A DNA stretch of 64,000 nucleotides from Methanosarcina sp. 2.H.T.1A.6 (lineage in GTDB: Archaea; Halobacteriota; Methanosarcinia; Methanosarcinales; Methanosarcinaceae), in contig NZ_JJOY01000024.1 of assembly GCF_000979455.1 (NCBI RefSeq), forward strand, positions 1 to 64,000, written 5' to 3'. The first letter of the stretch is position 1. Each line of letters begins with the position of its first letter. Shown here piece by piece: positions 30,862-39,726 of this stretch. The notes below the pieces were generated by a model. That model saw nothing but the letters and a program-made list of their open reading frames with translations, was not told the origin of the DNA and searched no databases. Position numbers and translations under genes: made by a program.

Positions 30862-31368
30862 TGTCAGATCAGTCCGGTTTTCTTCTGAATTTATCCTGAT
30901 TTATTCTGGACTTTTGTTCAGAAACAATTTTGTTCAGAAACAATTTTGTTCAGAAACAATTGCCTTTAGAATTCGTAAAGATAGATAAAACCAACCCCAA
31001 AATTCCGGCTCTAATCAAAAAAATTGCTGTTTTGTTTTTGACCTCCGGGAAAAAGTCCCGTTTTCCTTTTTGGAGAATGCTAACTGCGATCCAAAGAACC
31101 TTTTTGTCCTGAAAAAAATAAGAAGCCGCCACCTGCTGAGATAAATCATTAATTTATTATAACCCTGCTCAAAGTGATACAAAAACAGTTATAATATATT
31201 AACTATATAATTAAAAAAATAACATAACTTAATTATTTAGATTCAAACGGTGCAGGAGTGAATTTCACGTCCAAGCGCCAACAAACTGCATTGAAATTAG
31301 TAAAGAAATTGCAAATATAAACTGTGTGTATCATAATAGTTAACATTAAATATTTTGGTATGATCCAG
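30862..31368. other. Divergent spacer between dtdA and the beta-helix surface-protein gene
   Basis: It contains the repeat at 30912-30959 and AT-rich promoter-like sequence such as TTATAATATATTAACTATATAAT (31189-31211). No gene was found. Confidence 0.45.
30912..30959. repeat. 16-bp tandem repeat, three perfect copies
   Basis: TTTTGTTCAGAAACAA is repeated at 30912, 30928 and 30944. Each unit is itself an imperfect palindrome (TTGTT ... AACAA), so three hairpins can form in series upstream of dtdA. Confidence 0.9.
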
Positions 31369-34002
31369 ATGAATCTTTCCGAAAGAAACCAGATAAACAT
31401 TCATATAATGTTTTGCCTGGCTGCAGTCGCAGTCCTCCTTTTGATAAGTATCGGCACTGCAGCCGCCAGTGAGATCCATGTTAACCCTGACGGATCTGGG
31501 GATTACCAGACAATTCAGGAAGCCGTAAATAACGCATCCAGTTACGATACGATAATTGTGGCTCAAGGGAAATACATTGAAAACGTCGTTGTCTCTGCGG
31601 ATAAGGATAACATGACTATCCGTTCCGAACGCGGACCCGGACTTACCACGGTTCAGGCTTCTAATTCAGAGGATCATGTTTTCAAAATAATGGCAAATTC
31701 CGTTACGATCAGTGGGTTTAAAGTAACCGGGACGGTCAACTATCCATATAGTGGGATTTATCTTGATTCCGTTGAAGGGTGCAGTATTCTAAATAACACA
31801 GCATCGGACAACTATAACGGCATATACCTTGATTCTTCGAGCAGCAACACGCTTGAAAATAACACAGCATCAAACAACGAAAACGGCATATTTCTTAATT
31901 TTACAAGCAACAGTATTCTTTCTGAAAACCGGATGGAGGACAACAATTACAATTTCTACGCATATGGTAATTCTCTGGACACCAATATTGTCTATGCCAA
32001 TAATAACGTAGACGGAAAGCCAATTTATTACCTTGTTGAAGTTTCGGATCTTGAAATAAACTCATCTTCAAATGCAGGGACTGTTTATCTGATTGACTGC
32101 AAAAATATCACTGTAAAAGACCTGACTATTGAAAAGGAAGGGTTCGGAATACTCCTTTATAATACTACGGACTCGAAACTGGAAAACAATAATCTTACGG
32201 AAAATCTCTACGGTATCTGTCTTTCTTCTTCAAGCAGCAACACATTTACCGGTAACACGGTAAATGAAGGTAATCTAGAGTATTCTAGCGGAATTTACCT
32301 TTACGACTGTTATGATAACACTTTCTACGGAAACGTAATTGGCAAAACTTGGCGCGCCATTTACAGCTATGATTCGAACAACGACTATATGTCCAATCAA
32401 GTTTCCGGCTCTTATATCGGGAACTACTATAGAGACGTTTACCGCAAATACTCTTTGACTGAATCCTCTTATCAATGGATCAACACCACCAGGGACAATG
32501 CAACCTGGTATGACACGTCAGATGAAGATTATTCGGAAAAGGTCCATATAGGCTTTAACCTCACCCTCGACGGGGTTAACTACACCGACATGCAGATCGG
32601 GAGCAACGGGGTGATCCAGCTAATTCCGGCGGGGTCCGGAGAGCTTAATGCTTCTTCCTGGTATGGTCTCAAACACTGGGTTGACACATATCCTGACGAA
32701 ACGTTCATATTTGTCCTCTGTGACGACCTTACCGCAGAAGGATATGAAGAAGAAAATTTTGCATTTACCGACCTTGCAGCCACATCAGAAAAACATGGGG
32801 TTGAAAATACCTCCGCAGTTAATTTTGCTGAACCTGAAACCTTTAGCGAAAAAGCTGTAACAGAAAAGGACAGGGAAAAGAATGTTCAGGTTTCCATGAA
32901 ATCAAATCCAGTTGAAACTGCCCTCATGGGAAGCACTTTCCCGGACGTTCAGTGGTACGGGTACACAAGTTACTCAACTGGAGACACTGATTCCGAGGAC
33001 AACATTATCCCGTGCAATCTGACTGTTATCGATTATCATGTGATTACATATGGGGATTCGTATCATAACCGTGAGTACGGCGAATCCCCCCTCGATTTCC
33101 AGGTTGTGCTGTATGAAAACGGCACCATCAGGTTCAATTTTAAGAGGATTGAATATTCTTACTTTGATACTTCCCTCTACAGCGGTTTGTACCTGGGCAA
33201 CAATTCTTCCATACACGCAAAAGAGCTTGTCCATGTTGCAAGGGCAGGACAGTACGGGAACGAGACCTCATTCAGCACCCCGGTAATCCGCACTCTTTCA
33301 AGCAGTTATGACACTGACGGAGACGGCATTGCCGACAGTGAATACGATATTGCCAGCAGTCATTACAATACCAACCATGGCACGCAAACCGATTACTACC
33401 CGCTCGTCCTTCTTTCCGAGGCAGGCGCCCCGTCCACAGCCAGCGGTTCGGGCACGGCTTCATTTACCGTCAGTACCACGTTTACCAACCCGGCAAGTGT
33501 CGGTGTGGACATGGTTGAGCTTTACTACAAGAAAGATGGAGGGGACTGGAGCAAATACGGAGATAGCAGCACTGGCAGCTTCACATTCTCTACCGCTTCA
33601 GCAGGTGACTACTACTTCTATACTGTCGCAACGGATGTCTACGGAAACATAGAAGGTTTGCCTGATGATTATGATTCATACACTTCGGTGAGCATCAGTA
33701 GCGGAAACGGCGGAAGCGGCGGAAGCGGGACAGGGGAAGCCAGGATAATCTCCGCGGGGACAGATGAAACCGGGGAGGAGTCTGATGAAGAAGAAGACGA
33801 ATCTGACGGGTCAGTTATGCAGGTTCCTTCCTCAGGAGATACGGGTACATCCAAAAACTCCACAGCTTCTGAAGTAACAAAAGATTCCGGGGAAGAAGGA
33901 AACAACGGAGGAAATAACGAAGGAAAAGAGACCCCAGGATTTGAACTTGTATTCGCAGTTACAGGCATGCTGGCGGCTCTCTACTCCACCAGAAAAGAGT
34001 GA
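31369..34002 (+). CDS. Right-handed beta-helix (NosD-like) surface protein with PGF-CTERM anchor
   Basis: An 877-residue secreted protein. A signal peptide (IMFCLAAVAVLLLISIGTAA) is followed by a parallel beta-helix region (about 35-390) opened by YQTIQEAVNNASSYDTIIVA, with the usual repeated Asn/Gly turns. The middle region (about 390-630) has beta-sandwich character and LYENGTIRFNF. After it come an Ig-like segment, a Gly/Ser/acidic linker and the PGF-CTERM tail TPGFELVFAVTGML plus RKE. ATG 31369 follows GGTATGAT at a suitable distance; earlier in-frame starts are less likely. It probably sits at the cell surface, like the 1854-residue protein at 6.9-12.5 kb. The orphan RHS cassettes begin just downstream. 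Confidence 0.85.
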   Translation: MNLSERNQINIHIMFCLAAVAVLLLISIGTAAASEIHVNPDGSGDYQTIQEAVNNASSYDTIIVAQGKYIENVVVSADKDNMTIRSERGPGLTTVQASNSEDHVFKIMANSVTISGFKVTGTVNYPYSGIYLDSVEGCSILNNTASDNYNGIYLDSSSSNTLENNTASNNENGIFLNFTSNSILSENRMEDNNYNFYAYGNSLDTNIVYANNNVDGKPIYYLVEVSDLEINSSSNAGTVYLIDCKNITVKDLTIEKEGFGILLYNTTDSKLENNNLTENLYGICLSSSSSNTFTGNTVNEGNLEYSSGIYLYDCYDNTFYGNVIGKTWRAIYSYDSNNDYMSNQVSGSYIGNYYRDVYRKYSLTESSYQWINTTRDNATWYDTSDEDYSEKVHIGFNLTLDGVNYTDMQIGSNGVIQLIPAGSGELNASSWYGLKHWVDTYPDETFIFVLCDDLTAEGYEEENFAFTDLAATSEKHGVENTSAVNFAEPETFSEKAVTEKDREKNVQVSMKSNPVETALMGSTFPDVQWYGYTSYSTGDTDSEDNIIPCNLTVIDYHVITYGDSYHNREYGESPLDFQVVLYENGTIRFNFKRIEYSYFDTSLYSGLYLGNNSSIHAKELVHVARAGQYGNETSFSTPVIRTLSSSYDTDGDGIADSEYDIASSHYNTNHGTQTDYYPLVLLSEAGAPSTASGSGTASFTVSTTFTNPASVGVDMVELYYKKDGGDWSKYGDSSTGSFTFSTASAGDYYFYTVATDVYGNIEGLPDDYDSYTSVSISSGNGGSGGSGTGEARIISAGTDETGEESDEEEDESDGSVMQVPSSGDTGTSKNSTASEVTKDSGEEGNNGGNNEGKETPGFELVFAVTGMLAALYSTRKE

Positions 34003-34205: not shown

Positions 34206-34273
34206 TTTAAATGAAATTAAAAATTAAAAAGACTCTAATTTTTTGATACACCCTACAATTTATATGTCGTCTG

Positions 34274-35005
34274 ATGTGGTTTTATACTGCAAAATATAAA
34301 CTCCGGTATAATCCGCAGGCATTGAACAGGTATTCTTATGCGCTGAATAATCCGGTAAAGTATACTGATCCGAGCGGGCATTATGTTGAAACTGCCATTG
34401 ATGTAGCGTTCCTTGCAATGGACATTAACGATATCCGTACCGGGAATGCTGATAAGTGGACATACATAGGTCTTGCTACTGATGTTGTATGTGCTCTGGC
34501 GCCGGGTGTGACAGGTGGAAGGCTTGGAGTTCAGGCTCTGGAGGAAACGGTTACTCATGCGGATAATGTAGGGGATTTGTTCAAGCTGCTGGATAAGACG
34601 GCGGGAGTTACTGCCACAGGGAACAAAGTAGATAATGTAATCGATGGAGAAAAGTCCTTGGAAGGGCTTGCCGATGGCATAACACTTATAGGTGACTCAA
34701 TAGACAGTGGTCAATTCAGAAGAACACTTGGGTATGAAGGGAAGAAAATACAGATTAATAGTGGACATGGATATACTCGTGAACATCCAGCAAGTGGTAG
34801 TCTGGAAGAAGTTGGGACTATGAATGAAATTGAAAGTGCAATTGTTTTAGACGTAAATTCTGCTGTAAATTCTGGACTTGAACTACCAAATATGGGATAT
34901 ATTGAAAGAGTTGTGACTGTCAACAACAATCAAGTAGGATATCGTTTAATGCAAACCCAAGATGGTGTTTATAGAGTAGGAACATACTACCGTAAAGTTG
35001 AATGA
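34274..35005 (+). CDS. Orphan RHS C-terminal tip 1 with unidentified toxin domain
   Basis: A 243-residue fragment of an RHS-repeat polymorphic toxin. Similarity to the other three tips starts at about 34310 with YNPQALNRYSYALNNPV and the core-closing YTDPSGHYVET. The shared pre-toxin block follows (VAFLAMDINDIRTGNADKWT, then hydrophobic TGGRLGVQALEETVTH). Beyond about residue 110 it differs: a polar region with HGYTREHPASGS and VGTYYRKVE at the end. GHxxxxxH-type pairs occur in BECR-fold ribonuclease toxins, but the match is too weak to name it. It has no full RHS core, and its ATG has no ribosome site. A probable immunity gene follows after 10 bases. Confidence 0.75.
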   Translation: MWFYTAKYKLRYNPQALNRYSYALNNPVKYTDPSGHYVETAIDVAFLAMDINDIRTGNADKWTYIGLATDVVCALAPGVTGGRLGVQALEETVTHADNVGDLFKLLDKTAGVTATGNKVDNVIDGEKSLEGLADGITLIGDSIDSGQFRRTLGYEGKKIQINSGHGYTREHPASGSLEEVGTMNEIESAIVLDVNSAVNSGLELPNMGYIERVVTVNNNQVGYRLMQTQDGVYRVGTYYRKVE

Positions 35006-35015
35006 GGTGTTGAAA

Positions 35016-35441
35016 ATGGATATTCTTCAAATGAGAGATGAAATCAATAAAATAAGGAATTACAAAAAATCAGATTTTGATGAAAATGGTTTGATAAAAA
35101 TAAGACAGCGTTTATCAAATCTCAGTGAAGAATTTAAACTTAAATTGAAAGAGACCAATGAACCTGCATTACTAGTTAGTATTATTGAAGAGGATAAAAA
35201 GAACTATGACATGCCGATTGATTTGATGTTTTTGGTTTATCAGAGATTAATAAAAATTCAGCCTCACAAAAACATATTGCTGGATTTTGCAAATTATTTG
35301 GGGTTCATAGGAGGACCAGATTGGGAAGAAGAATTAGAAGAAATAATAAAACTTGCGAACGATGATAGAATAAAAGAAGCTGCAGAGATTGCTCTGAAAG
35401 TTGATTACTTCAAGTACCCATTTAATGAAGGAATTGACTGA
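35016..35441 (+). CDS. Putative immunity protein for RHS tip 1
   Basis: A 141-residue acidic protein, alpha-helical in appearance, starting MDILQMRDEINKIRNYKKSDF. I do not recognise the family. ATG 35016 is preferred over an earlier one because GAGGTG lies seven bases before it. It starts 10 bases after the toxin frame stops, is AT-rich like the toxin end and unlike the RHS block, and has no homologue elsewhere in the window. Position and size are those of an immunity gene that protects against the adjacent toxin; this is inference. Confidence 0.65.
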   Translation: MDILQMRDEINKIRNYKKSDFDENGLIKIRQRLSNLSEEFKLKLKETNEPALLVSIIEEDKKNYDMPIDLMFLVYQRLIKIQPHKNILLDFANYLGFIGGPDWEEELEEIIKLANDDRIKEAAEIALKVDYFKYPFNEGID

Positions 35442-35590: not shown

Positions 35591-36559
35591 ATCAACAACG
35601 GCACATCCACCAGCTACTTCTTCCGCGATGACGAACGCGTAGCCAAAGAAACATCCGAAAGCATGGAGTGGTACCTCTCCGACCATATAGGCAGCACTTC
35701 CCTGATGGTTGATGAAACCGGGCTTGAAGTCGAACGAACCGATTACTTCCCATACGGCCAGGTTCGGTCAGGCGGTCTGGAGAAATACGGGTTTACAGGG
35801 CAGGAGAACGATGCCGATACAGGGTTGATGTATTACGGTGCAAGGTATTATTCGCCTGAGTACAGGGTTTTCGTTCAGCCGGATACACTGCTTCCTGATC
35901 CGTATAATCCGCAGGCGTTGAACAGGTATTCTTATGCTCTGAATAACCCGGTGAAGTATACCGATCCGAGTGGGCATTATGTTGAGACCGCTCTTGATTT
36001 AGCGTTCCTTGCAATGGACATTAACGATATCCGCACCGGAAACGCTGATAAATGGACTTACATAGGTCTTGGTGCTGATCTGGTATGTGCTGCCCTGCCT
36101 GTAGTTACAGGGGGTAGAGTTGCTGTAGAGGCGGTGGAGGAAACAGTTACTCATGGTGATGAGCTTGCAGACTTCTTTAATCTGATGGATAAGGTGGCGG
36201 ATACAGAGAAAAATCTAGATAATATTGACGACTCAACTGACATTGCAAAAACAATAAAAGAAGCTACTAATGTAAATCAAAATGTTCCAGAAAAAGCACT
36301 TGATATAGCAAAAAAAATTAAAGAAAATAATGGAAAAACCCCAAATGGGTATAAAGGGGGTCGATCCTTTAGAAACGATGGTAGAAATGGTGATCAATTA
36401 TTACCTGGAAATGTAAACTATAAAGAATATGATATTGATCCTTACGTTCGTGGAAATAATAGAGGGTCAGAAAGGATCGTGGTTGGGGATGATGGTTCTG
36501 TATGGTATACTAATGACCATTACAAAACATTTTCACAAATTGAGGATGTGGAGAAATGA
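35591..36559 (+). CDS. Orphan RHS C-terminal tip 2 with barnase/RNase Sa-type ribonuclease
   Basis: RHS-core homology begins at 35591 (SYFFRDDERVAKETSES) right after a TAG. The first ATG is 35663, giving 298 residues. MEWYLSDHIGSTSLMVDETG, YDYFPYGQ-like and YGARYYSPEYRVF segments are the standard end of the RHS shell, closed by KYTDPSGHYVET. After the shared pre-toxin block the last 80 residues form a microbial ribonuclease of the barnase/RNase Sa family. The catalytic set is complete: Glu255 in YKEYDI, Arg271 in RGSERIV and His286 in TNDHYKTF. It would cleave RNA after entry into a target cell or within a sibling lacking immunity. Its stop overlaps the start of the barstar gene. Confidence 0.88.
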   Translation: MNNGTSTSYFFRDDERVAKETSESMEWYLSDHIGSTSLMVDETGLEVERTDYFPYGQVRSGGLEKYGFTGQENDADTGLMYYGARYYSPEYRVFVQPDTLLPDPYNPQALNRYSYALNNPVKYTDPSGHYVETALDLAFLAMDINDIRTGNADKWTYIGLGADLVCAALPVVTGGRVAVEAVEETVTHGDELADFFNLMDKVADTEKNLDNIDDSTDIAKTIKEATNVNQNVPEKALDIAKKIKENNGKTPNGYKGGRSFRNDGRNGDQLLPGNVNYKEYDIDPYVRGNNRGSERIVVGDDGSVWYTNDHYKTFSQIEDVEK

Positions 36560-37023
36560 AACAAAGTGAATATATTCATTTCATTTTTTGTGATACAAGT
36601 CGTTTGGATAAGTTTATTGAAACTTTATCAAAAGGTAAAGATTCATACTTGGCAAAAATAGACGGTAGCAAATGTAAGGATCTTGATAGTTTATTCTCTG
36701 AGTTTAAACAGGCTTTCAAGTTTCCGGATTATTTTGGATACAACTGGGCAGCTTTTGATGAATGTTTAAATGACCTTGACTGGATTGATGCAGAATCATA
36801 TGTGCTGGTCATAAAAAATATGACTGAAATTTTGCCTGATGACAATATAAATTTTGACCGGTTTTTAAAGTATTTATATGAAGCGCTTACTGAATGGACA
36901 GAAGGTAGGGACTGCGATGATTTTCCGACCGAAAAAAAGCCTTTTCACATATATTTTCATAGCTCTGAAGAAAACAAAAAAGTTTTAATTGAAAAAGTAA
37001 GGGGAAATTTTTCTGATGAATAA
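36556..37023 (+). CDS. Barstar-family ribonuclease inhibitor (immunity protein for tip 2)
   Basis: A 155-residue barstar-like protein. FPDYFGYNWAAFDECLNDLD is the barstar signature region, whose acidic helix blocks the ribonuclease active site. ATG 36556 overlaps the toxin stop in an ATGA, so translation is coupled, and GGAG precedes it. Barstar proteins bind barnase-type ribonucleases tightly. Finding one fused by overlap to a domain with the complete Glu-Arg-His set makes this a secure toxin/immunity pair. The AT-rich composition, unlike the RHS block, suggests acquisition together with the toxin end. Confidence 0.92.
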   Translation: MKQSEYIHFIFCDTSRLDKFIETLSKGKDSYLAKIDGSKCKDLDSLFSEFKQAFKFPDYFGYNWAAFDECLNDLDWIDAESYVLVIKNMTEILPDDNINFDRFLKYLYEALTEWTEGRDCDDFPTEKKPFHIYFHSSEENKKVLIEKVRGNFSDE

Positions 37024-37119: not shown

Positions 37120-38007
37120 GACAGCACACTGTCCATAGACAAAAACGGCCTTGAAGTCGAACGCACCGATTACTTCCCATACGGCCAGGTCAGGTCAGGC
37201 GGTCTGGAGAAATACGGGTTTACAGGGCAGGAGAACGATGCCGATACAGGGCTGATGTACTACGGCGCAAGGTATTATTCGCCTGGGTACAGGGTTTTCG
37301 TTCAGCCGGATACACTGCTTCCTGATCCGTATAATCCGCAGGCGTTGAACAGGTATTCTTATGCTCTGAATAACCCGGTGAAGTATACCGATCCAAGCGG
37401 GCATTATGTTGAAACTGCCATTGATATAGCGTTCCTTGCAATGGATATTAATGATATCCGCACCGGGAATGCCGATAAGTGGACATACATAGGTCTTGCT
37501 ACTGATGTTGCATGTGCTGTCGTGCCGGGTGTGACAGGCGGAAGGCTTGGAGTTCAGGCTCTGGAGGAAACAGTTACTCATGGTGATGAGCTTGCAGACT
37601 TCTTTAATCTGATGGATAAGACGGCGGGTGTAGAGAAGAAAGTGGATAATGCGATTGATGCTGAAAAAACTGTTAATCATATTGATGATACACTTCAAGC
37701 AACAGATTATGTTCTAAAAGCAAACACTAAAGCTGAAGCAAAAAAAGCTGTTGATGGATTACCTCTCGAGATCAGAGATAAAATAAAAGATTTTTACAAT
37801 GGAGGATCTAATAAATACACAGAGTTTACATTACAGAAAACTGAAAACGGATACTATGTAGCTACTATGACCAAACCAGGAAATGTTCCTGGTTCTTACG
37901 CTACCTACTATAAGGAGATTTCACCTTCTGGAGAAACTCTCAAGGTATACAAAGAAACGATAGATCCTTCTGGTAATCTTGTACACTCTAAAAATAAAAT
38001 GGGATAA
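37120..38007 (+). CDS. Orphan RHS C-terminal tip 3 with unidentified toxin domain
   Basis: RHS homology runs in frame from about 37120 (NGLEVERTDYFPYGQVRSGG). An in-frame stop shortly upstream leaves ATG 37255 (MYYGARYYSPGY, 250 residues) as the first possible start. The core end and pre-toxin block are nearly identical to tips 1 and 2. From about residue 150 the sequence is unique. The last 90 residues, with DKIKDFYNGGSNKYTEFTLQ, TMTKPGNVPGSYATYYK and DPSGNLVHSKNK, form a compact charged domain resembling C-terminal toxin ends of other polymorphic toxins. I cannot name its activity. A probable immunity gene follows 14 bases later. Confidence 0.72.
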   Translation, partial: DSTLSIDKNGLEVERTDYFPYGQVRSGGLEKYGFTGQENDADTGLMYYGARYYSPGYRVFVQPDTLLPDPYNPQALNRYSYALNNPVKYTDPSGHYVETAIDIAFLAMDINDIRTGNADKWTYIGLATDVACAVVPGVTGGRLGVQALEETVTHGDELADFFNLMDKTAGVEKKVDNAIDAEKTVNHIDDTLQATDYVLKANTKAEAKKAVDGLPLEIRDKIKDFYNGGSNKYTEFTLQKTENGYYVATMTKPGNVPGSYATYYKEISPSGETLKVYKETIDPSGNLVHSKNKMG

Positions 38008-38021
38008 TAGAAGGGAGTAAG

Positions 38022-38408
38022 ATGATCGATCTAAAAAAAATAACAAGTTTTAGGGATTTAATCATCTCAAAAAAAGAACTCTTTGAATCTGTTCCATTTA
38101 ATCCACCTAAAGAATATTGGAACAATCGAGTAGTAGTCTGCAGTGAGCATTTAATACATTTATTGGAAGAATATAAGGCTGGAAAGATTTCAAAGAAAGA
38201 TATATTAGATTGGGTAAACACAATATGGTTCTCTGAATGGTATTATTACTGTGAGGACTATAGTGATTCTATTGCAAGCGTAATGGATGAACTCGAAGAA
38301 ATCGATGAAGAAGGAAAGGAATTAACAGTAGAGAAGACAGAGCTTTATATCTCTGCTCTCCGAAACAACCTTGAGGAGTGGAAACTTAAAGACAAAGATA
38401 ATATTTGA
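38022..38408 (+). CDS. Putative immunity protein for RHS tip 3
   Basis: A 128-residue protein rich in Glu, Lys and aromatic residues (WVNTIWFSEWYYYCEDYSD). The start at ATG 38022 has AGGGAG in place. I do not recognise a named family, but small acidic proteins of this size directly after an RHS or CdiA toxin end are usually its antidote. It is only found here in the window, and its AT-rich composition matches the toxin end. The immunity role is inferred from position. Confidence 0.65.
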   Translation: MIDLKKITSFRDLIISKKELFESVPFNPPKEYWNNRVVVCSEHLIHLLEEYKAGKISKKDILDWVNTIWFSEWYYYCEDYSDSIASVMDELEEIDEEGKELTVEKTELYISALRNNLEEWKLKDKDNI

Positions 38409-38509
38409 TTATTCTTTCTCACAAATGACAGAGATTTGAACTTATCCCTTTATGCTTTTGCCTGATAACAGGCAAATTCACTTTTTTACTTAATTAGCTT
38501 TTTGCACAA

Positions 38510-38875
38510 CCGGACAGTTTACTTCCTTATCCTTATAGTCCGCAGGCGTTGAACAGGTACTCTTATGCGTTGAATAATCCGGTGAAGTATACCGATCCAA
38601 GCGGACATTATGTTGAGACTGCCATTGATGTAGCGTTCCTTGCAATGGACATTAATGATATCCGCACCGGGAATGCTGATAAGTGGACCTACATATGTCT
38701 TGCTACTGATGTTGTATGTGCTCTGGCGCCGGGTGTGACAGGTGGAAGGCTTGGAGTTCAGGCTCTGTAGGAAACAGTTACTCACGCGGATAATGTTGGA
38801 GATTTGTTCAAGCTGCTGGATAAGACGGCGGATGCAGAGAATAAAGTAGATAATGCTCTTCAATCCCACAGGCGG
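38510..38875 (+). pseudogene. Orphan RHS C-terminal tip 4, broken
   Basis: Homology to the shared block starts near 38510 (QPD-LLP-PY-PQALNRYSYALNNPV) and continues through YTDPSGHYVETAIDVAFLAM. A TAG at 38768-38770 replaces a Glu codon in TGGRLGVQAL-ETVTHADNVGD, after which the frame stays recognisable to about 38855. No toxin domain or immunity gene follows. The block ends where the K+ channel gene begins on the other strand. It is a decayed cassette or one cut by a later rearrangement. Confidence 0.85.
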
Positions 38876-38877
38876 TT

Positions 38878-39726
38878 CTATAATTCTGCTCCGCAACGCT
38901 TACAGAATTTAGCATCGCTGTCATGCCCCTCAAAACTGCAATTTTGACACACCTTTCCTTTAAGGTTTCTGCTTGCATAGGTCATCTCGGATGTGACAAT
39001 ACCTGTCGGAACCGCTATGATGCTATAACCTATTATCATGATAAATGACGCCAGTGCCTGTCCGAGATTCGTCTCAGGGACTATGTCCCCGTATCCTACG
39101 GTTGTAAGTGTTATGATTGCCCAGTAGATGCTCCGGGGTATGCTGGTAAACCCGCTCTCTGCCCCTTCAATAACGTACATCAGGGAGCCCAATATCACCA
39201 CCAGAGTCAAAACCGTAAATTGGAACAGGATTATTTTTCGCCGGCTTGCACGTAAAGCTCTTATCAAGAACTCAGCTTCACCAAGATACTGGACAAGTTT
39301 GAGCACCCTGAAAACCCTGAGTAACCGTAGACCCCGGATCACCACCAGATACCGGCCGCCTGGCAGAAGCAGGCTAAGATATGTCGGGAGAATTGCCATC
39401 AAGTCTATGATTCCAAAAAAACTTGTGGCGTATTTGAGGGGCCTCCCAACACAGATCAGGCGCAAAAGATACTCCACTGTAAATAGTATCGTGAAAATCC
39501 ATTCCAGGGAATAGAACAAACCGCCATATAAAGCTGCGAGATTACTTACGCTATCAAGCATAACGACAATAATACTCAGCAGGATTGTAAGAATCAGGAC
39601 TTCATCAAAAATCTTTCCGGCGGGAGTGTCAGCTTCAAATATTATTGTATATAACGTATTTCGCCAATTACTATCAGCCGGCCTATTTTGCGGGTTATTT
39701 TTCACTGAAGCAGCCATTGTTAACAT
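38878..39726 (-). CDS. Voltage-gated-type potassium channel with C-terminal zinc ribbon
   Basis: A 282-residue channel subunit with six membrane helices. The S4 helix carries regularly spaced arginines ([18 protein letters not shown]), and the pore has the K+ selectivity filter [13 protein letters not shown]. The C-terminus is a short zinc ribbon, [19 protein letters not shown], in place of the usual regulatory domain. ATG 39717 is an alternative start three codons in. It would conduct K+ in response to membrane voltage as a tetramer; the zinc ribbon may aid assembly or sensing. Its stop nearly touches the broken RHS tip 4 on the opposite strand. Confidence 0.9.

What the first reader, a model, noticed from the sequence alone, without database searches (positions are those of the whole stretch)
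36421..37023. Barnase-type ribonuclease and barstar pair inside an archaeal RHS cassette
The tip keeps the complete Glu-Arg-His catalytic set of barnase/RNase Sa, and the next frame, coupled through ATGA, is a clear barstar. Barnase and barstar are classic bacterial proteins. Their presence as an RHS tip and antidote in a methanogen suggests transfer across domains.
Basis: partly seen in the sequence, partly recalled or inferred. Interest (0 to 1): 0.75.

Follow-up and report, generated by a model that had tools for sequence, protein, structure and literature searches.

The report
Bacterial barnase–barstar cassette in a methanogen
A methanogen carries a bacterial-type RNA-cutting toxin and its matching antidote, spliced onto the tail end of an archaeal toxin-delivery protein whose main body is missing from this genome; it is a real and rare cross-domain transfer, but of a kind already described.

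Summary
Confirmed. The C-terminus of ORF 35663-36559 is a barnase/RNase Sa-family domain (PF00545, E 2.6e-11; about 36257-36541). The next gene, overlapping at ATGA (36556-37023), is a barstar (PF01337, E 2e-22). AlphaFold models match solved barnase/RNase Sa and barstar. Glu, both Arg and His are kept.

The tip is 68-69% identical to Bacillaceae tips. All 80 best database loci are bacterial, against 1 of 393 genomes sampled in the archaeal phylum. The closest full match carries the same N-extended barstar next door, so the pair probably moved together from Bacillota.

This genome has no carrier, so the toxin has no evident export route. Cassettes 1 and 3 have relatives on full carriers in other Methanosarcinaceae. 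The barstar has a 59% homologue in another archaeal genus, in an immunity-only island. Best reading: a displaced cassette kept as immunity and as recombination stock, not a deployed weapon.

Archaeal RHS toxins, Tox-Barnase in Euryarchaeota and methanogen barnase-barstar pairs were reported in 2012. Hence a new member of a known kind.

The parts
34272..35005 (+). Cassette 1: truncated RHS core end, linker and tip 1 (no family hit)
   Evidence: Tip is 78% identical to an orphan tip in G075 and 59% to the live tip of a 2484-aa carrier in G061.
34998..35441 (+). Immunity gene 1
   Evidence: 71% identical to the gene behind the G075 tip and 61% to that in G061. A fragment lies beside the barstar homologue in G053.
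35591..36213 (+). Cassette 2: archaeal RHS core end (TIGR03696 at 35744-35977, ending NNPVKYTDPSGH) and pre-tip linker
   Evidence: E 6.5e-22. 84-92% DNA identity to the G075 carrier and cassettes.
36257..36541 (+). Barnase/RNase Sa-type toxin tip (C-terminus of ORF 35663-36559)
   Evidence: PF00545 E 2.6e-11. PDB phmmer best hit RNase Sa2, E 2.1e-5. AlphaFold pLDDT 86, Foldseek barnase/RNase Sa2.
36556..37023 (+). Barstar with an N-terminal extension of about 30 residues (antidote)
   Evidence: PF01337 E 2e-22. AlphaFold pLDDT 93; TM 0.8 over barstar length.
37123..38007 (+). Cassette 3: RHS core end, linker and tip 3 (no family hit)
   Evidence: Tip is 49% identical to the tip of a 1611-aa carrier ORF in G094.
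38022..38408 (+). Immunity gene 3
   Evidence: 51% identical to the gene behind the G094 carrier tip.
38499..38887 (+). Cassette 4: decayed RHS core end and linker with an in-frame TAG; no tip or antidote
31324..34002 (+). NosD-like beta-helix protein with PGF-CTERM, at the place where G075 has its RHS carrier

Best explanation
A guanyl-type ribonuclease toxin module (barnase/RNase Sa family) and its barstar antidote, acquired as one unit from Bacillota and joined to the C-terminal end of an archaeal RHS polymorphic-toxin gene. In a complete system an exported SpvB/TcdB/RHS carrier would deliver the released tip to a competitor, where it would cut RNA, while barstar blocks it in the producer. 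In this genome the carrier is gone and the pair is a displaced (orphan) cassette. Its most likely present roles are cytoplasmic immunity from the barstar against neighbours that carry the same tip, and a source of sequence for recombination back onto a carrier through the shared core end of about 300 bp. Shown: both families, catalytic residues, folds, gene order, absence of the carrier, shared core ends, bacterial relatives with the same pair. Inferred: RNase activity, inhibition by the partner, delivery, present role.
For: Families and folds. Catalytic residues invariant in 37 tips. Tip sits in a supported group of 20 rows, 16 of them labelled Bacillota (99/93); the nearest rows are Aquisalibacillus and Bacillus at 68-69% identity. 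Barstar pairs with an archaeal homologue (100/99) inside a set otherwise of Bacillota and Priestia plasmid rows (100/99). The closest tip with an intact neighbour (L049), and L057 further out, are followed at once by the same N-extended barstar; in L050, the second-closest tip, that gene is split over two frames. Synteny with G075 on both flanks, carrier absent; no RHS repeats in the genome. Cassettes 1 and 3 have homologues on full carriers in G061 and G094. The 59% identical barstar in G053 stands without any barnase, next to an immunity-1 homologue. Foreign stretch has GC3 0.18-0.27 against 0.49 in the core. Orphan Rhs toxins that lack start and export signals become active only after recombination with the main gene: PMC3967940; orphan modules as a reservoir with expressed immunity: PMC3150448.
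Against: No test of activity, expression or binding. The orphan ORF could still be translated from ATG 35663. Barstar hotspot Asp35 is Ala65 and Asp39 is Glu69, so inhibition may use other contacts. The assembly is in 54 contigs, so a carrier could lie in a gap, though the locus itself is uninterrupted. Low GC is shared by all cassettes here, also by those with only archaeal relatives, so it does not by itself mark bacterial origin.
Confidence: 0.72

Rival explanations
1. Dead relic: the array is decaying since the carrier was lost, and neither toxin nor antidote does anything now.
For: No carrier in the genome; cassette 4 is decayed with an in-frame stop; no evident start signals for the orphan toxin frame.
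Against: Both barnase and barstar frames are intact with catalytic residues kept. The barstar shows dN/dS about 0.15 against its G053 homologue, which has no barnase beside it (dS 1.7 is near saturation and much of that history may predate carrier loss).
Confidence: 0.17
2. Stand-alone toxin-antitoxin pair: the 298-aa orphan protein is made from ATG 35663 and works inside the cell, with barstar as antidote.
For: Overlapping ATGA gene order; the frame opens with a Met that is also the first Met of an orphan ORF in G075.
Against: No clear ribosome site at 35663; the same core piece sits before every cassette, so it is a remnant and not a domain of a TA toxin; toxin-first order and tip relatives fit polymorphic toxins.
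Confidence: 0.06
3. Active secreted toxin: a carrier exists in an assembly gap or is supplied in trans, and the cassette is loaded onto it.
For: Relatives carry full RHS genes with tips at their ends; shared core ends allow loading.
Against: The genome is 99.9% complete and has no RHS repeat or carrier hit; the carrier's place is filled by a NosD-like gene on an unbroken contig.
Confidence: 0.05

Closest known systems
Tox-Barnase / Imm-Barstar of polymorphic toxin systems (Zhang et al. 2012, PMC3482391)
   Same: Barnase-type tip after an RHS core, barstar gene at once downstream; listed there for Bacteria and Euryarchaeota.
   Different: Here the carrier is missing from the genome; antidote is of an N-extended subtype; barstar Asp35 is Ala.
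   Same: Same genomic place, same core end and linker, a row of orphan tip/immunity cassettes.
   Different: G075 keeps a 2217-aa SpvB/TcdB-mid/RHS carrier with a colicin D tip and has no barnase; the window has no carrier.
Orphan CdiA-CT/CdiI and Rhs modules (PMC3150448, PMC3967940)
   Same: Displaced toxin ends with a remnant of the carrier and their immunity genes, in series.
   Different: In those bacteria the main gene is next door; here it is gone. Archaeal host.
Aquisalibacillus elongatus and Bacillus sp. JCM 19034 tips (L049, L050)
   Same: 68-69% identical tip; N-extended barstar next (split over two frames in L050).
   Different: Different N-terminal carrier without a Pfam hit; Bacillota.

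Membership tests
Barnase/RNase Sa family (PF00545) | Profile match above curated cut-off | tested here: met
   44.3 bits against 24
Barnase/RNase Sa family (PF00545) | Catalytic Glu73, Arg83, Arg87, His102 equivalents | tested here: met
   All present and invariant in 37 rows
Barnase/RNase Sa family (PF00545) | Microbial ribonuclease fold | tested here: met
   Foldseek probability 1.00 to barnase, TM 0.53-0.59; RNase Sa2 TMt 0.63
Barnase/RNase Sa family (PF00545) | Guanyl-specific RNA cleavage | not testable with these tools
   Needs an RNase assay
Barstar (PF01337) | Profile match above cut-off and fold | tested here: met
   79.4 bits; TMt about 0.80-0.84 to most barstar entries
Barstar (PF01337) | Acidic interface pair DxxxD (Asp35, Asp39) | tested here: not met
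   Ala65 and Glu69. Position 35 varies widely in the toxin-linked barstars of that alignment, so this lowers certainty on the interface, not on the fold or family
Barstar (PF01337) | Binds and blocks the partner RNase | not testable with these tools
   No complex could be modelled; needs a binding assay
RHS polymorphic toxin | RHS-associated core end (TIGR03696) directly before the tip | tested here: met
   E 6.5e-22 at 35744-35977
RHS polymorphic toxin | YD/RHS repeats and export/delivery domains in the same protein | tested here: not met
   No PF05593 hit in the genome and no carrier: orphan cassette only
RHS polymorphic toxin | Immunity gene immediately downstream | tested here: met
   ATGA overlap with barstar

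The most novel reading that the evidence does not exclude
Methanosarcinaceae keep a shared, mobile pool of toxin-tip/immunity cassettes that takes in modules from Bacillota and is kept by carrier-less genomes for immunity alone, so that archaea in mixed anaerobic communities are protected against toxins that circulate in both domains.
Probability: 0.25. Interest if true: 0.6.

Novelty: new member of a known kind. Interest (0 to 1): 0.4.

Why it matters
It gives a well-bounded case of a toxin-antidote pair passing from Bacillota into a methanogen, with the join to archaeal RHS sequence visible in the DNA, and it is the only barnase-type domain among 393 genomes sampled from the phylum. It also shows a toxin-cassette array in a genome without its delivery gene, which makes the question 'immunity store or relic' testable in genetically tractable Methanosarcina.

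Tried and rejected
Contamination or misassembly: rejected, since the cassette is inside a contig, fused to core and linker 84-92% identical to those of a relative, with flanks 81-82% identical to the same locus there. Chance match: rejected by two profile hits and two fold matches. Phage origin of the barstar: no match among 50,697 phage records. Exact branching: AU tests do not decide whether the archaeal tip or barstar lies inside or beside its bacterial set (p 0.39 and 0.37), so only 'with Bacillota' is claimed; the window tip with the two Bacillaceae tips as one clade is not rejected (p 0.53). Low GC as proof of bacterial origin: rejected, because all cassettes are AT-rich. In the junction alignment the row g075_carrier_end was translated in a wrong frame and was ignored. 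The archaeal toxin survey of 2019 (mBio) was not held, so whether it lists this case is unknown.

Full report
Observation. ORF 35663-36559 and ORF 36556-37023 overlap by ATGA. Pfam finds Ribonuclease PF00545 at residues 198-293 of the first (E 2.6e-11) and Barstar PF01337 in the second (E 2e-22), both above curated cut-offs. Against solved structures the tip's best sequence match is RNase Sa2 (E 2.1e-5), then barnase. Foldseek returns barnase/RNase Sa2 for the tip and barstar for the partner (TM about 0.83 over barstar's length). Glu (36425), Arg (36461), Arg (36473) and His (36518) correspond to barnase Glu73, Arg83, Arg87 and His102 and are invariant in 37 rows (the assignment to barnase numbers rests on known barnase residues and the alignment). 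The given start 36421 lies inside the domain, which begins near 36257.

Anatomy. The tip follows an RHS-associated core end (TIGR03696, 35744-35977, ending DPSGH) and a linker to about 36213 that other archaeal cassettes share. Four such core ends stand in series at 34272, 35591, 37123 and 38499. The first three have a different tip and downstream gene each; the fourth is decayed (in-frame stop, no tip). These are the only RHS cores in the 4.07-Mb genome, which has no RHS repeats.

The missing carrier. A 5.75-Mb relative (G075) has the same flanks at 81-82% DNA identity, the same kind of cassettes, and a 2217-aa carrier with SpvB, TcdB-mid, FG-GAP and RHS domains and a colicin D tip. A tblastn of that carrier against the window finds only its last part (residues 1886-2142), in the four cassettes; a NosD-like gene stands in the carrier's place. 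Searching its first 1847 residues in the whole genome finds only one stretch, which matches its DUF2341 part in an unrelated place. The barnase cassette is therefore an orphan here. Tip 1/immunity 1 and tip 3/immunity 3 have homologues at the end of full carriers in G061 (2484 aa) and G094 (1611 aa), so this pool does supply carrier tips in relatives. Whether the window's lineage lost the carrier or never had it at this place is not shown; loss is the simpler reading, because core remnants remain.

Origin. PF00545 occurs in 1 of 112 family genomes and 1 of 393 genomes sampled from the phylum, this one only. A scan of 84,980 species gave 342 relatives; the best 80 were all bacterial, led by Aquisalibacillus elongatus (69%) and Bacillus sp. 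JCM 19034 (68%). The tree puts the window tip in a supported set (99/93) of 20 rows, 16 of them labelled Bacillota. The barstar of L049, and that of the more distant Bacillales tip L057, has the window barstar's N-terminal extension and follows the tip at once; L050's is of the same kind but is split over two frames. The window barstar pairs with a 59% identical barstar of another archaeal genus (G053) at 100/99, inside a set otherwise of Bacillota and Priestia plasmid barstars at 100/99. AU tests do not decide inside versus beside. Direction from Bacteria to Archaea is inferred from distribution. Many Clostridia relatives of the tip showed no barstar behind them, and in one Streptococcus plasmid the gene there is not a barstar.

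Antidote pool. In G053 the barstar stands without barnase, on a contig that begins with a fragment of the immunity-1 homologue and another small gene. Two immunity types of the window's array thus recur together, without tips, in another genus. Barstar W/G053 has dN 0.25 and dS 1.7, which suggests selection on the protein, although dS is near saturation.

Mechanism. Shown: an intact catalytic set, folds, pairing and absence of the carrier. Inferred: the tip cuts RNA at G, barstar blocks it, and a carrier once delivered or could deliver it. Bacterial orphan Rhs tips are silent until recombined onto the main gene (PMC3967940), and orphan modules are proposed as a reservoir, with orphan immunity expressed in E. 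coli EC93 (PMC3150448). Retained immunity genes after effector displacement are known in Vibrio (PMC5361080). The same logic fits here best: immunity store and recombination stock.

Known or new. Zhang et al. 2012 list Tox-Barnase in Euryarchaeota with Imm-Barstar, describe RHS toxins with cassettes in M. acetivorans and mention barnase-barstar-like systems in a few methanogens; they say that the relationship of archaeal barnases was hard to settle (PMC3482391). This case adds an affinity to Bacillota, the join to archaeal RHS sequence and the carrier-less state. It is a new member of a known kind.

Noticed in passing
window 34272-35441: Tip 1 and immunity 1 match no Pfam family above cut-off yet recur as a pair in G075 (orphan) and on a full 2484-aa carrier in G061: a toxin/immunity pair without a named family here.
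   Followed up: partly
window 37680-38408: Tip 3 and immunity 3 match no Pfam family above cut-off and recur at the end of a 1611-aa carrier ORF in G094: a second such pair.
   Followed up: partly
window 31324-34002: NosD-like beta-helix protein with PGF-CTERM occupies the place of the RHS carrier of the relative G075; insertion or replacement not dated.
   Followed up: partly
L131 1-1167 (G053): Immunity-only island: fragment of immunity 1, an unknown small gene and a barstar, followed by transposase-like fragments.
   Followed up: partly
L038 3001-3769: A Streptococcus plasmid RHS protein ends in a barnase-type tip but is followed by a gene that is not a barstar (SUKH-like by eye).
   Followed up: no
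L007 1417-1776 (G051): A further archaeal barstar, with an internally repeated N-terminus, in a genome without PF00545; its long branch falls among Bacteroidota rows.
   Followed up: no
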